Shown: positions 9,701-53,500 of the stretch, piece by piece
Numbering within the stretch: the stretch's first letter is position 1
Layout: every line of letters starts with the position of its first letter
DNA from: Ianthella basta
Lineage: Eukaryota > Porifera > Demospongiae > Verongiida > Ianthellidae
NCBI GenBank assembly: GCA_964019415.1
Contig: OZ025873.1
Location: 4,316,776 to 4,380,775 of the forward strand
Direction: 5' to 3'
DNA length: 64,000 nucleotides
Notes under the pieces: model-generated
Databases searched by the model: none
What the model saw: only the letters and a program-made list of their open reading frames with translations
Told to the model about the DNA's origin: nothing
Translations under genes and position numbers: made by a program

Positions 9701-11822
9701 CATACTTTGGTGTATTTTGTGACCATTTCCATATTTTAATGACATGGTTCTTTTATTGTCCATAACTACACCACTCTCAATCTTTTCCCCCTGTTCCATT
9801 TCCTTCCTTCACTCTTTACTCTTCTCTTCCACTCTCCGCCTGTCTATAGAACTTTTTCCGTGATCAACCAGAGAGCTTAGCCAATGTGAATCTCATCGGA
9901 GAAGTGGCAACATTTGCACAGCACTACTACAACAACATTAGACAAACCAATGCTCAAGTGGTCACCCAGGTTCTGCAGACACTGGTGGAAGTGTGTGTGG
10001 TATGTTCTGTTTTCAAGTGATCTGCAACATACAGAGAAAAATATGATATTGAATTAAGCTTTGTTTGTTATTGTTGATCCCTGTCAGGGCAACTATTACA
10101 ACCAAATTGTTGTGTTTGACTGCCAGATTGTGGACCTTCTGAATCAGATTTTGCTGATGGAATCCATGCCAGGAGAGGTACAGTGATTACAGTAACTTGT
10201 GTAATAACAAAAGAACTACTTTACAAGGCATTAGGCTAAAGGCAGTTTACTGTTCTTCTAGAATATTTTTGCAACTACGTCATTTTATTACTTTGAAGTC
10301 GTCTATCTGCAATCAATTATTCCATCACTTCCACCCATACTTGTGGCTTGTCTCCACTACATACATTTACCTTATTTTGCCAAATAGCCATTATTAGAAA
10401 TGACTACATCAGTGTGTTTGCCTCTGATAGCAGGAAAACCCACAGAGTCTGATGCTGGACTTGAAGGCCTCAGCTGTTGAGCTGCTGGAGGTTATGCTAG
10501 AGGATACACATGAAGACACGCCCAAGCTGGCAAGAGTGAGCTAGCACTTGCATGCATTAGATTGTTCTATTGACATAGTCTATCAGGTTGAATGATGAAC
10601 TCTGGCAGGCATCAGAGACTTACTGTATACTCTTCATATTATTATAATGGTCATAATATCAAGCTTCAAGACCATGATCATGTCAATCTATTAATGTGGC
10701 TTAAGGAATTATGTTCTAGAAATGCCTGAAATCAGATAATACTGACCTGAGGATAGCATGTGTCACAACCATTAACTTCTGTTTCTCCTTCATGTGTTCA
10801 AACAGAGTGTACTCAAGTCCCTTGACGTTGAAGCAGTTCATGGTACTCTTGTGTACTTCTATCACATGAAACGTGACAAGGACTTAGTGAGTGTTTGAGC
10901 AGTTCACTTTTGGAAGCCTTACGTACAAAATTTAATATTTTGGGTAAGGGTTTTCTGACATGGTATTGCTGTTAAATGTATGCATTGCTCAGTAGTTTGT
11001 ATAGCATTCATGCTCTTGTCTCAAAACTCCTTAGCCCTAATGTCTTAATAAACCTAGCTACTACACTTTACAGAAGTAACATGCCTCAATTGTGGAGCTT
11101 TGGGGCCATGTGGGTAGATATCTTACATTGGTCTGAAGTCTTTCATGACTTTCAGGAGTATATACTTACATGCTATCAACTGATCACGTTTCTATGCTGT
11201 GCCACACCCCCTATTAATTTCACACTTATACATAGGTAAGTCTAAGGAAAGATGATGATGCTCAGAGAGCACTTTTCAAGACCTTCCATGTCATGAAGCA
11301 CCTCTGTGATTTTGAAGGTGTTTCTGAAGAAACTTTAGGTGAGTATTCTTTCAGAAATGGCAGTCCACTTATTGGTGTGTAGTTTCTGTGCATCAGAGTT
11401 TAACACATTAAATGAGCATTAATTTTAATTATTGGGGTCCGAGGTCATAGGACAAAAGTCACAGCTGCTAGCTAGTAACAATTGCTACATTACATTGAGT
11501 GGGAGATATTTAGACATTAATATGTGTATATGCAGAGGCCTGTGTAGCTAGCTGGACATGCCAGCTTTGATACATGTACAGCTGTAATCACTAATGCAAA
11601 TAATCTTTGGATGTTCATGCGGAGTTATGACTATATATATATCTATAGTAACTGCTGGAGCAGCAGTGTCCTGTTCTAGCGCACACAGTTAACCATGTAA
11701 GTCTGCACAAGGCCTAGGGTTTGCTGAGATGATGGTTCTACTTGTGATATATGTTTGTATAAGTATATTGTTACTTGCACTGTATTTACGGTATGCATAT
11801 ATGCATACACACACACACACAC

Positions 11823-41500: not shown

Positions 41501-44500
41501 AAGGAGAGGCTTGCTGGAAAGGCTTACCAGTTTTTGGCTGCTTTTGCTCTGTTAGTCTAAGTAATATGTATTTCATGCATGCACATGATATGCACTCAAG
41601 TTCAATGTTGCAACCTTAATGCCATGGTAACAGACTGTTCTTCGGAGCAACAAAAACTATGCAGTTAAGTCCCACCTGGAGTTGTAGTCTGTGCAATGAA
41701 CTGAATGAACTGTGCACTAGCTACCTTGCCAGTCCAGCTATGATACATGAAATAGCCTAGCTTTGTATACATACGAGTCCAAACGTTTTTCCTTTGGTGT
41801 CACTCTGCAAGCAGTGTCAATCTAGGAGTCCACTCTATGCATCAGTCTTCATTTGAATATGTTTGATTATCAATTATCCTCAGCAAAAAGTGTCTTATCC
41901 ATTAATCGTGACAATGGACTAATTTCTGATCCAATTTCAAGGCTGTGTGTTCACCTGTTGCTTACTGTACTGTACCAGTGTAGTTCAATGAAACGAGATT
42001 CTTGAGCAAGACACAACTGATAATGATAAATCAATCAAATGCAGGACGTTTTGACCCGAAGGTCTTTGTCAACTGCATACAGGAACAAAGACAAAGACCT
42101 TTGGGTCGAAACGTCCTGCATTTGATTGATTTATCATTATCAGTTGTGTCTTGCTCAAGAATCTCATTTCATTGTATTATCAACGCAACTATGAGCCTCT
42201 ACAATATCACCAGTGTAGTTGTTTACCCATTTCTTATCATACTCTTTTGCTATACATTTCAAACCCTTCCTTGTGTAGTGGTCACCGTCCGGTACAGGAA
42301 AAGTTGTTTGCACAAGTGGATGCATTGTTGGATGCACACTATGGTGTTCCATACATGGCACTGGTCATCAGTGAAGTGAGCATAGTGACTATTAGTACTA
42401 TAGCATTGGTTGAGTGGCATTGGCTTGCAGTTCATGCACAGATTTCACCTAAATACATCTACTACTGCTTCACTATGTGATGTTGTTTTTTGCTTGCACT
42501 GGTGATAAAAAATGAGAGAGTTTGGGCCAAAGTTTTGAATGAAAACATTGTGTGATTGCCTCTCCTACAATATACGTACCTAAAATGCCCATAAAGTGTG
42601 CCTTATTATTTTATTAGCATTCATACATTTCCAAGTTTAAGGGACAAGGTCACACCCCCACTTTGTTATACCATAGATGTTGTAGAGTATTTATGGTTAC
42701 ACTTTAACTCTAACCCTAGCTTAACCCTATCCCCCAGGTGTTCACCAACTACCATGAGCTATGTGTGAAGCTGCAGGGGCCTCAGATCAAGCAGGCTGTT
42801 AATGTCATCACAAAGAGCAGTCCACTAGGACAAGCTGCACTGCTACAGGCACTCAAGTCTATGACAATCACTAGAGTGAGTGTGTAGGTTATATGTAGTA
42901 GTGGTTGCATCCAACCATTAACCATCAGTACGCCACACTGATGAGCCCCAATTAGGGCGAAACAGCTGTCTGTGGCTCTTCCCATCTTTGTTGGATGACT
43001 GGGGGGAGGCGATCACTGGTTGCCAACCAATAGGGCTTCGTGCCCCCCTGCCAACTGAGACACCAATACTGGTGTAGTTGGTAGGTCAGGCGTAATATCC
43101 AGTGATTAACCTTTCAACCAATGATAAGAATTAAGAGGTAACTATTAGGGCAGGTGGAGGGTGGAATTGCTTAGGTGTGCTGAGCTCTGAACAGATCTAT
43201 TGAGAGCTCACTGTCATATGCTACAAAGAACTGCTAGCCAGCAAGCATCGTGAAGTGAGCAGATCATGAGGAACACAAGAAAAAGTGTACCTATTTGCAC
43301 ATATAATGCCCCTTAAGCCCTTCCCTGAGCTTTCAATCACCCACAATTTCTTTTCCTTGCATTGGAGCACTTGTATGCATGCTCTGAATTAAGATGAACT
43401 TATTATTTTATTGTGTTCTTATATTCAAATGAATAAACCTAGCTGTAGTCTTATTAGAGTTTCAAAATACGTTTTTGACAGGTTCTACTTAACAATGGTG
43501 ATCTGTAAATGGATCAGTTCAGTACACAGTACAATGAAACACTACGCTGTTTGTAAGTAAATGTAATGTAAGTCAGTAGTCAAGCCAAAACATATCATTC
43601 CATTACACAGAGACATTCCAACGTATTCTTGACACATGTGAGTATAATTATAAATTGCATACAGTATTCCAGAGTGTTGTCACGTGCTACATGCAGGTGA
43701 ACAGTATTGATCTGCCAGTGAAGAGGACACAAGATTATGTGATGAAGTATTTTTGTCGCCACAGAGAGTGCTTCAGTGATATCCTGGGACAAGAAGCAAG
43801 TGACTGCAAGAATCGGTAAATTTGTGTGACATGCAAGCTCCTTCGCATTTAAGGTGATAGCTAGTTAACATCCTACACAACCTAACTGAAATCATTTAGT
43901 TGCTAAATTATCACGATGAGTAGTGATGAAGGCCCGTGGATACTATCTTTGATTGTGTTTTCCTGATAAATCTCTGGTAAATTATGACCTCACATGATCG
44001 ATTCTGCTTACATGCTGTGTAAAAATTGACTCAGGATGACTTGCAATGGGTGTAAGTTAGTTTCTGCCTCTCAAGTAACATTCCACTTTCATACACTGTA
44101 CCTACCACTACCATTGACTCTGCATCTGCAGTCTGGATCACACTGTTAAAGTGTGCAGTGACATATTACTGAGGTCACCATGCATGCATGAAGCCTGTGC
44201 ACGGGAGGCCGCAAGCATATTCCAATCAAAGTGTGCATGGTTTTCCATAAACATTCCCTTCATATAAGCACAGTGGAACTTCTGAATAAAGGACACGCTT
44301 GGGACCCAGCATTTTGTCTTTGAGGGAGGTTGTCCTCTTTCAGAGGCTATTTTGCATAAATTGAGTATACAAATGTACTATCAGCTCGTTTATTGTTTGG
44401 AGGTTTTCCTTTTTTGGAGTGTCCTTTATCAAAGGCTTAACTGTTCATTGATGTGTGGTTGGCATTTTCTAGGTTGCACATTGTCTCAGCATCTACCGAT

Positions 44501-50500: not shown

Positions 50501-53500
50501 CTGTGATTTTCTCTGCCATCGGAAAGAGGGAAAGTTCTTGGCAGGCATCAAAAGGAGATTGGATCTGGCTGTGGCTATCAGCAGGGAAACGTAAGATTGT
50601 GTCCACATGCATACATGTAAAACACTGTTTTGATATTTGTATAAATCCAGGGGTGGTCAATTGGTGTGAAGTATGTATTTCTGGTCTCCTCCCAGTGTTA
50701 CATAGTCGACATAATGAGGGCTGTCATAGGTCATGAGTTTCTACTTGTACTCATGTGTTTAGCCTTTAAGTGTAGAGGGCACACAATGTAATTATGAAAT
50801 CATTTGTAGGTACATGCCAATGAGACCACTTCAGGCATCCTGACAGGCATTGCAATTTATGAGCATACTTTCACAGGTTACAAGAATCTGACAGAATTGT
50901 CCACTTATGAACACCCACAGCCTTTGGTCAACACCTTACCTGGATCTGGGTGGTGCTCGAGGCACGCAGTGGGCTGCACAAAAGAATACTCTGTCCTGTT
51001 TGCCAGCACCATATACTCTCTTTAATTTAGTGATTCAGCTCAGAGAAATGGTCCAGCGTGGAGAGTTCTTGCTGTATATTTGCTTAGGTTACATTGCATC
51101 TAAGCACCTTAACTACCAGTAGTATACAGTACCATTAGTTGTCTGCATGTGCATGGACCAAACCTGCAGCAACTTAGTCTGTATGTAGTGTTTTCTGTCA
51201 ACTAGTGGTGTTCTGCAATAGTTGTGTGATAAAAATAGGATTGTTGTGATTGGTATGCATTTGTATCTGCTGTATGCTTGTACATTTTGCAGCCGCACTT
51301 TGAGGGCTCAACTCTTGAGCAGAGAGAAAGAGAGACAGAAGCTGGTTGGTTAATGCAGGAATACACGATTCATGGGTGTCATCTATTGAAGCGAACAGTA
51401 AAAGTGTCACTCCATATGACTGTGTATTCTCTATGTGTCCTTCCTTGTTATATCGGTGATGTGTAGTGTGCAGTGCAGTTATAATGGAAACTTACAAGTG
51501 TATGAGATTCTTAGCTAAATGAGTACTGGACATTGACACTAATGTAGCTATAGAGACAGAGGTACCATGAAGCTAAGGCAGACACTTGGATGGCAGTTAC
51601 ATAGCAATGCAAAGAATGAAGAATTTTTCCATAGATAAAGTTTGGAAGGAAATTAGAGAAGAGAACTAGTTGGGTATCTGTGGATGGTTCTGGAAGAGAC
51701 TGAGAAAGATCCTAATCATAGTGGGTGGCTGTTGACTGTATCAGGCATAAGTCACAAACCAGTGAAACAAGTGTTAAAACCCCATGGGGCTGCCACCCCA
51801 ACGAAATTGATAAGTAGAGATAAAGGGTGACTGTAACAATACATCAGGCTCACCTTGTGAATTGCACATGTCATATGTCACTTCCTCACAAAGGAAGTGA
51901 GCACTACTTCGGACATGTTTTTCATATGCTGATATCCTTGTGTCATAGGTCTTTACATCCCACTCAAAACAGTCAGAATTTACTCCTTCTGGTAACAGTG
52001 AAAGTGAGGGTAAAAAGAAAGAGGAGCAAGAAGGAATTGAGTTGCAAGCACTCCCTCATTCCCATCCCTCTGTTGACCCTGTGGAGAAGGATGGTGCAGA
52101 ATGTCTTGCACATCATGACAGAACTAATTTTCACCTATCACTCCAGGTGCTGGGTCACATGTGTGATGGACAGAACCGCCATTTGCAGGTATACAGATAT
52201 ATACAGTACAGAACATATCAAGTTTGTATACTATATCTCACTAATACAGATGCAGGCATCAGCATGAGTAATATTTTGGCCTTAGACTGCATGCAAATGA
52301 GTATGGGTAGACTATAGGTATAGGCACAGGGCAAGTGCAGCTCATAGTGATTCCCTGTGCATTGCGATTCTCAAAAATGCAGTTAAATTGCATTGGCTTC
52401 GAGGACTAGTATACGGTGTTACACTGTGTTGGATATTATATATGCCTATATGAAACTGCTATCCTGTTGCAATGTCAATGAGGGTGGTTCAGTCACTCCA
52501 CCCTGTTCAGTGGCAATAATGCTTCAAAGTGTGTCAATGGTAGCCAAAGGGTAGTCAGAATACCTGCATGTTTTTATAGGATATGGCTATTTAATCACCT
52601 ACAGCTACAACACTACCTTCTCTTAAAGTTTCTTTCTATCTCTCTTTTCTGTCTCCTTTCATCTCCCCTCCCTTTCTTTCTTTCATTATCTCACTCCTCT
52701 CTTCCACTTTTCCTCTGTTGTATCAAGAACTTTTTCCGTGATCAGCCTGACAGCATTGTCAATGTAAATCTCATTGGGGAGGTGGCAACCTTTGCACAGC
52801 ACTACTACAGCAACATCAGGAGCTCCAATGTTCAAGTGGTGACACAGGTCCTAAAGACACTGGTGGAAGTGTGTGTGGTATGTTCTGTTCTTGGATTGTT
52901 CTTGAATTAGATCATTTGTTGAGGTGACTATTCATTTTCATTCGCAAGTGTTCGGTATCATGCAGAAGACAATGTGGCATTGCTTTGAGCAAAGTTTCCT
53001 TTGCTGTATTCCTGATAGGGCAACTATTACAACCAAGTTGTTGTGTTTGACTGCCAGATTGCGGATCTTCTTAATCAGATTTTGCTGATGGAACCAAATG
53101 CAGGAGAGGTACAGTGATTAGTTGCAGTCATTATTTTGACCAAGCACACGTACTAATATTGCTTATGACATTAAACCAAAGGCTTGTCCCAAACTTTTTA
53201 TGTTGACTATAATACTTCAGCTAACTGCAACAACTATTATGCTTGCTGTTGTTGTTCAGCATGTGCAGCTTGCACACTATGGAAGTACAGAAACTAAGGG
53301 ATATTATATTTTGTCAGAAAATGAGGGGAGTGCAATCTGCTACTAGAGATGGTCTTGGTGTATTACATTGCATACTGTCATAAACAGACACCTCAGCAAG
53401 TTACTTAGCAGAAATATATTTATTTGTACTTTCATGGCATATGTATTCCTTTCTTCTTCTGCTTCTGGAAGAAATGCTCACCATTGTGAATGAAACATTT

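What the first reader, a model, noticed from the sequence alone, without database searches (positions are those of the whole stretch)
42932..42976. Complete hammerhead ribozyme fold in an intron of an IP3R-like gene
Every conserved hammerhead position is present (CTGATGA, GAAA, GUC cleavage site). Helix I pairs perfectly over six bases and helix II over four, while helix III is a minimal palindrome. Hammerheads with tiny helix III are known from Penelope-like elements and retrozymes. Because it lies sense within a gene B intron, self-cleavage would cut the pre-mRNA intron.
Basis: partly seen in the sequence, partly recalled or inferred. Interest (0 to 1): 0.78.

Follow-up and report, generated by a model that had tools for sequence, protein, structure and literature searches.

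The report
Retrozyme copy with hammerhead in intron
The self-cutting RNA motif is real, but it belongs to a small, widely copied animal jumping element (a retrozyme) that landed in this intron, and the way its relatives sit in the genome suggests that Penelope-type retrotransposons move it.

Summary
The hammerhead is real: Rfam RF00163 matches 42932-42976 (+) at 40.1 bits (cut-off 34). It is one piece of a dispersed mobile repeat. The window copy spans 42908-43117. The family forms tandem units of about 350-374 bp, and the genome holds 601 such hammerhead cores at two mismatches or fewer, with none in the reversed control. It fits the metazoan non-LTR retrozymes of PMC7229834. Helix I continues beyond an internal loop (8 bp here, 13 bp in complete copies).

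It is one 5'-truncated copy among hundreds; nothing found points to a gene-specific role.

Many retrozyme insertions here are head-to-head. In 12 of 13 two-armed cases one arm ends short and the other later (median 42 nt). Exact target-site duplications of 11-15 bp flank 10 of 13 (0 of 156 swapped controls). Six of six two-armed Penelope-like elements examined show the same asymmetry. This is the published PLE "tail" signature (PMC11167929), so PLEs probably mobilise these retrozymes. Self-cleavage and circular RNA were not testable.

The parts
42908..43117 (+). Retrozyme copy: 5'-truncated, one arm, ending at the family's short 3' end (...CCTTTCAA)
   Evidence: Genome search: 81 matches at 82-100% identity including itself, the best full-length ones 93-99%; alignments of copies; end compared with other insertions
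42932..42976 (+). Type I hammerhead ribozyme core; cleavage predicted between 42970 and 42971
   Evidence: RF00163, 40.1 bits, gathering 34; sequence printed
42908..42915 (+). 5' strand of outer helix I (CATCCAAC), truncated from 13 bp in complete copies
   Evidence: Pairs with 42990-42997 in the fold; 13-bp version counted over 36 copies
42990..42997 (+). 3' strand of outer helix I (GTTGGATG)
42923..42943 (+). Alternative hairpin CATCAGT/ACTGATG that would cover the catalytic CUGAUGA
   Evidence: In the minimum-energy fold; 99.6% of cells paired over 36 copies, but no pair changed on both sides
42738..42875 (+). Exon just upstream; donor GTGAGT at 42876
   Evidence: Peptide conserved in 5 other C6 places (65-83% identity) and 2 on C10 (37-38%); sequence
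42876..43612 (+). Intron that holds the retrozyme (3' limit inferred from reading phase and paralogue match)
   Evidence: the acceptor is inference
52728..52889 (+). RIH_assoc (RyR and IP3R homology associated) domain of the host gene
   Evidence: PF08454, 3.1e-9; also found by genome search

Best explanation
This is a copy of an animal-type non-LTR retrozyme: a small retroelement whose units of about 350-370 bp are transcribed in tandem and cut by their own type I hammerhead into monomers that would then be circularised. The RNA is copied into new sites by a reverse transcriptase supplied in trans, most likely that of the Penelope-like elements (PLEs) of the same genome, which start at two nearby internal sites on the RNA and extend from both cut target strands. 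That yields head-to-head arms of unequal length between target-site duplications. The window copy is a one-armed, 5'-truncated insertion in an intron of an IP3R/RyR-like gene. Shown here: ribozyme sequence and fold model match, family, unit length, copy number, duplications, arm asymmetry, co-resident PLEs with the same asymmetry. Inferred: self-cleavage, RNA circles, PLE mobilisation, any effect on splicing. I hold the retrozyme reading at about 0.93 and PLE mobilisation at about 0.75; the number below is for the retrozyme reading with PLE as the likeliest mover.
For: RF00163 at 40.1 bits; 601 core sites, 0 in the reversed control. Tandem units: an array with 350/362/350 spacing; among the 100 of 601 sites that one search listed, neighbours within 700 bp are 11 same-strand (368-374 bp apart), 14 head-to-head, 0 tail-to-tail. 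Hammerheads over the cut-off in 13 of 20 family loci scanned (20 matches; one locus is the window's own). Over 36 copies 96.3% of ribozyme pair cells form, against 29.6-37.2% with slid partners. Unit RNA folds with z -7.82, 0 of 100 shuffles as stable. Of 13 two-armed insertions, 10 have exact TSDs of 11-15 bp against 0 of 156 swapped pairs; 12 have one short and one long arm. In the 11 with TSD >=9 the short arm runs 3-15 nt and the long arm 38-62 nt past a common anchor. PLEs with RVT_1 and GIY-YIG: neighbours within 4 kb among 55 GIY-YIG hits are 13 head-to-head, 2 tandem, 0 tail-to-tail; 6 of 6 two-armed PLEs examined have one short (49-53) and one long (80-88) arm, TSD 9-15, and a minimal hammerhead lies just before the ends. 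PMC11167929 maps this PLE tail to two reverse-transcription start sites.
Against: The window copy is a monomer with one arm and no detectable TSD (best shared stretch 6 nt). L034 has two short arms and no TSD; in L050 the repeat is only 7 nt, within the control range, and its arms were classed by eye; L056's 9-nt repeat is also within the control range (9-10 nt in 11 of 156 swapped pairs). Four further insertions judged by coordinates alone fit (short/long), but six are unclear. Retrozyme ends resemble PLE ends only weakly: random pairs score as high in 8, 37, 89 and 579 of 5000 for the four comparisons. For the window copy the ribozyme is not the lowest-energy fold: -28.3 kcal/mol free, -27.6 with inner helix I enforced, -21.7 for the full textbook hammerhead, and the 96-nt stretch folds with z -1.87 only. 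Pairs changed on both sides number 2, no more than in shuffles. Seven of 20 family loci had no hammerhead over the cut-off. Rfam finds no hammerhead in four PLE loci; the minimal one came from my own pattern. No RNA data.
Confidence: 0.85

Rival explanations
1. The retrozymes are moved by LINE-type (TPRT, apurinic endonuclease) elements; the inverted arms arise by twin priming or template switching.
For: LINE-type endonuclease domains are abundant here (150 scored hits of 604 candidates); TSDs of 11-15 bp fit LINE insertions too (recalled); PMC7229834 names LINEs and PLEs as candidates.
Against: In twin priming the inverted piece is internal (recalled), whereas here both outer ends are 3' ends of the unit, one short and one long, as in 6 of 6 PLEs. 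No two of the 150 LINE hits lie within 10 kb of each other, against 13 head-to-head PLE pairs of 55 hits; this control is weak because that domain sits at the 5' end, which truncated arms lose.
Confidence: 0.15
2. The hammerhead is a PLE pseudo-LTR fragment and not a separate retrozyme.
For: PLEs here carry a minimal hammerhead close to their 3' ends and have similar insertion structure.
Against: The PLE hammerhead differs in sequence and lacks a helix III, whereas this one has a 2-bp helix III with AGCU loop and a 13-bp outer helix I. The tandem unit is 350-374 bp, and no reverse transcriptase frame belongs to it in the loci read: the only RT-like frame seen, in L058, is a separate stretch more than 2 kb from the array.
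Confidence: 0.05
3. The hammerhead has been kept for a function in this gene's pre-mRNA, like the conserved intronic hammerheads of amniotes.
For: Sense orientation in the intron, 95 nt behind the exon, with an intact core.
Against: 98-99% identical copies lie elsewhere in the genome, so it looks recent; none of the scored copies lies in the paralogous genes; it is 5'-truncated. Conservation in other species could not be tested because the genome has no relatives here.
Confidence: 0.03

Closest known systems
Metazoan non-LTR retrozymes with type I hammerheads (Cervera and de la Pena 2020, PMC7229834)
   Same: Type I hammerhead with 2-bp helix III and palindromic tetraloop; tandem units within the published 170-400 nt (here 350-374 bp); many dispersed copies; TSDs longer than 4 bp; highly self-paired unit RNA; PLEs in the same genome.
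   Different: Head-to-head arms with a PLE-type tail, which I did not see described for retrozymes in the parts read; species and sequence differ; unit GC 47%, where the paper gives <45% in one place and <50% in another.
Penelope-like elements of the Penelope/Poseidon kind (PMC11167929, PMC3846280)
   Same: Head-to-head inverted arms, one arm with an optional 30-40 bp tail, short TSDs, and a hammerhead.
   Different: Retrozyme units have no RT/GIY-YIG frame; their hammerhead is not the minimal PLE form; the retrozyme arm difference is 23-52 nt (median 42) against 30-37 nt in the PLEs here.
Plant LTR retrozymes (PMC4918200, seen as listing only)
   Same: Non-autonomous element with hammerheads and, as published, circular RNA.
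   Different: Type III hammerhead, units of 600-800 nt and 4-bp TSDs in plants according to PMC7229834; here type I, 350-374 bp, and TSDs of 11-15 bp.
Conserved intronic hammerheads of amniotes (recalled; cited in PMC7761336)
   Same: Hammerhead in a gene intron.
   Different: Here a copy of a multi-hundred-copy mobile family, not a conserved single-copy motif.

Membership tests
Metazoan non-LTR retrozyme | Type I hammerhead above curated threshold | tested here: met
   RF00163 40.1 bits, cut-off 34; 13 of 20 family loci
Metazoan non-LTR retrozyme | Tandem units of about 170-400 bp (family) | tested here: met
   350/362/350 in L033; 11 same-strand neighbours 368-374 bp apart
Metazoan non-LTR retrozyme | Tandem arrangement (the window copy itself) | tested here: not met
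   One partial copy only, 42908-43117
Metazoan non-LTR retrozyme | Target-site duplications longer than 4 bp (family) | tested here: met
   Exact 11-15 bp in 10 of 13 two-armed insertions, 0 of 156 swapped controls; none for the window copy
Metazoan non-LTR retrozyme | Low GC (<45% or <50%, both given in the paper) | tested here: inconclusive
   Unit 47%, window copy 52%, window 41%
Metazoan non-LTR retrozyme | Highly self-paired unit RNA | tested here: met
   One unit: z -7.82, 0 of 100 shuffles
Metazoan non-LTR retrozyme | Tertiary contact between loops 1 and 2 | not testable with these tools
   An internal loop in helix I exists; the contact itself was not modelled
Metazoan non-LTR retrozyme | Self-cleavage and circular RNA | not testable with these tools
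   Needs RNA work
Penelope-like element | RT plus GIY-YIG open reading frame | tested here: not met
   The window copy is 210 bp; RVT_1 and GIY-YIG were found in separate elements
Penelope-like element | Head-to-head arms with tail and TSD (retrozyme family, not the window copy) | tested here: met
   12 of 13 retrozyme insertions and 6 of 6 PLEs examined
Conserved intronic hammerhead | Conservation at the same place in other species | not testable with these tools
   The genome has no relatives held

The most novel reading that the evidence does not exclude
Animal retrozymes are moved by PLE proteins, which start reverse transcription at the same two-site arrangement on retrozyme RNA as on their own RNA and extend from both target strands. 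The tail and head-to-head arms are the footprint. The retrozyme would then be to PLEs what a SINE is to a LINE, and its conserved hairpin CATCAGT/ACTGATG could act as a switch that hides the ribozyme in the RNA circle.
Probability: 0.7. Interest if true: 0.65.

Novelty: new member of a known kind. Interest (0 to 1): 0.45.

Why it matters
PMC7229834 left open which machinery moves animal retrozymes and named LINEs or PLEs, with PLEs as a strong candidate by co-occurrence. The insertion anatomy here gives direct structural evidence for PLEs and a simple test: count arm ends and TSDs in any genome with both. It also supplies a genome with hundreds of copies on which PLE initiation on retrozyme RNA can be tested in vitro. 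For the window itself the message is sober: the hammerhead is a mobile-element footprint in an intron.

Tried and rejected
Rejected: that the motif is a chance match. Rejected: that it is a PLE pseudo-LTR. Considered and left unproven: a switch hairpin. It pairs in 99.6% of cells, but one strand is the catalytic core and cannot covary.

Led nowhere: PDB search with the exon peptide gave no match. Ten exon-like frames gave no Pfam match. PF01365 rang only on C9 and C17. A PDB search with another exon gave only designed proteins and weak signal-peptidase matches, and one more gave none. No tRNA gene in the window. Rfam at E<=1 found no hammerhead in four PLE loci. A second, unrelated hammerhead family among the 18 matches was not followed. 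The organism was not identified; no phylum is claimed. Searches for prior reports were (listings and abstract starts). They showed no paper that describes a PLE tail on retrozymes, and (Porifera with hammerhead ribozyme) returned no paper. Two of the papers were then read in part (PMC7229834 parts 1-4 of 6; PMC11167929 parts 1-2 of 4) and two in passages (PMC3846280, PMC7761336).

Choices behind the counts: 41 loci were scanned for arm ends, some overlapping. The 13 two-armed insertions were picked by eye as those with an antisense arm on the left and a sense arm on the right. Left out were near-duplicates of counted insertions (L015, L023, L060), arrays (L033 and the C14 cluster), and one-armed or unreadable cases. 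Some head-to-head pairs are probably segmental duplicates (C4 3.407/3.408 Mb; C5 7.29-7.31 Mb). The six PLE insertions were those with both ends in hand; the 9-nt TSD of L075 is weak. The 36 aligned ribozymes were chosen from 60 distinct stretches found. The four coordinate-only insertions that fit (C16 730 kb, C12 1684 kb, C3 10226 kb, C20 3029 kb) and the six unclear ones (C14 4838 kb, C1 8669 kb, C1 5718 kb, C1 5765 kb, C22 1779 kb, C22 4535 kb) come and were not read as sequence.

Full report
What was claimed.

The motif is there. Rfam's Hammerhead_1 model is the only family to reach its gathering score in the 64-kb window, at 42932-42976 +, 40.1 bits against 34. Sequence and helices are as described, and the predicted cut lies between 42970 and 42971. 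The 33-base core pattern with up to two mismatches occurs 601 times in the 209-Mb genome, and its reversed control 0 times.

The motif belongs to a mobile repeat. A search of the genome with 421 bases around it gave 81 matches, 39 of 1032 candidates being scored, so counts are lower bounds. Homology covers 42908 to about 43117. The same 210 bases recur on many chromosomes, the best full-length copies at 93-99% identity. In L033 the repeat stands in tandem at intervals of 350, 362 and 350 bp. Among the 100 sites that one search listed, neighbours within 700 bp are 11 same-strand (368-374 bp apart), 14 head-to-head and 0 tail-to-tail. Of 20 family loci scanned, 13 hold a hammerhead over the Rfam cut-off (20 matches; one of the 13 is the window's own); seven do not.

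The ribozyme is bigger than 45 bases. In complete copies helix I resumes outside an internal loop with 13 further pairs; the window copy, truncated at its 5' end, keeps eight (42908-42915 with 42990-42997). Over 36 copies (of 60 found) 96.3% of pair cells form, against 29.6-37.2% when partners are slid. Two outer pairs change on both sides (C-G to U-A in 9 copies, A-U to U-A in 8). The number of such pairs does not exceed shuffles, though the number of such cells (17 against a mean of 7.2) and the covariation score exceed all 500 shuffles; related sequences can do that by descent. A competing hairpin, CATCAGT with ACTGATG, is kept in 99.6% of cells without covariation and is part of the minimum-energy fold of the window copy (-28.3 kcal/mol). 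Enforcing the inner helix I costs 0.7 kcal/mol, and the full textbook fold scores -21.7. A full unit RNA is strongly self-paired (z -7.82).

Insertion anatomy. Of 41 loci scanned for arm ends, 13 were readable two-armed insertions with an antisense arm on the left and a sense arm on the right. Ten have exact target-site duplications of 11-15 bp; no swapped pair of flanks among 156 shares 11 or more. L056 has 9 bp and L050 7 bp, both within the control range, and L034 has none. Twelve of 13 have one arm ending at the short site (...CCTTTCAA or the equivalent) and one ending further on (...TTCCCCCTTT or the equivalent); L034 has two short arms. In the 11 insertions with a repeat of 9 or more, the short arm runs 3-15 nt and the long arm 38-62 nt past a shared anchor; the difference is 23-52 nt, median 42. 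Four more insertions fit by coordinates alone and six are unclear.

Penelope-like elements in the same genome. The GIY-YIG model gives 55 hits. Neighbours within 4 kb are 13 head-to-head, 2 tandem and 0 tail-to-tail. Two frames tested carry RVT_1 and GIY-YIG. Near their ends lies a minimal hammerhead that Rfam does not report at E<=1 in four loci. In six of six two-armed PLEs examined, one arm ends 49-53 nt and the other 80-88 nt past the hammerhead, with duplications of 9-15 bp. None of 150 LINE-type endonuclease hits (of 604 candidates) lies within 10 kb of another. That is a weak control, because the domain sits at the 5' end.

What this means. PMC11167929 (parts 1-2 of 4 read) shows that a lizard PLE protein cleaves and extends both strands and starts reverse transcription at two internal sites, which explains the 30-40 bp tail seen in genomic PLEs. 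PMC3846280 (passages) describes the inverted arms, the tail and short duplications. PMC7229834 (parts 1-4 of 6 read) describes animal retrozymes and calls PLEs a strong candidate for their mobilisation, because both carry hammerheads, stand in tandem and co-occur. The retrozymes here carry the PLE footprint, which goes a step beyond co-occurrence. Sequence likeness between the two sets of ends is weak (random pairs as good in 8, 37, 89 and 579 of 5000) and is not relied on.

The host gene. The exon 42738-42875 upstream of the element is conserved in five other places on C6 and two on C10, and the next exon likewise. Downstream on the same strand is a RIH_assoc domain (3.1e-9). RYDR_ITPR was found only on C9 and C17. 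The gene is IP3R/RyR-like and one of a local cluster. The element starts 32 bp into the intron, and the predicted cut lies 95 bp behind the exon. No duplication flanks the window copy. Whether transcripts are cut there is unknown; hundreds of copies and the truncation argue against a gene-specific role.

Verdict. Observation confirmed; interpretation partly supported. The element is a new member of the animal non-LTR retrozymes. The useful extra is evidence that PLEs move them (about 0.75, inference from anatomy).

Noticed in passing
window 9844-9999 and 52722-52877, and C6 4.25-4.53 Mb of the genome: A cluster of IP3R/RyR-like genes: six RIH_assoc matches on C6 within about 255 kb, two of them in the window, and two more on C10. 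Exons of the window's first gene match those of the second.
   Followed up: partly
window 41981-42179: A near-perfect inverted repeat, two 90-nt arms 94% complementary with 19 nt between them, in the same gene region; possibly another small mobile element.
   Followed up: no
L016, L020, L022, L024, L025, L026 (each around 1501-1556): A second hammerhead family in the same genome with a longer helix III and, in most copies, CTGAAGA instead of CTGATGA; no tandem repeats seen within these 3-kb loci.
   Followed up: no
genome C4 9562715, 9567647, 9572581: Three hammerhead sites on one strand spaced about 4.93 kb apart, as if a 4.9-kb tandem repeat carried one each.
   Followed up: no
L065-L078: Minimal PLE hammerhead (CTGATGA or CTGAAGA with GATC-TACG-GATC helix II and no helix III) missed by Rfam at E<=1 in the four loci tested.
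   Followed up: partly
window 42923-42943: Hairpin CATCAGT/ACTGATG conserved in nearly all copies that would hide the catalytic core; possibly a switch, possibly just loop 1 of the ribozyme.
   Followed up: partly
genome C14 4.276-4.291 Mb (L035, L036, L038, L040, L046, L055, L058): A large array of diverged retrozyme units in two opposite halves.
   Followed up: no
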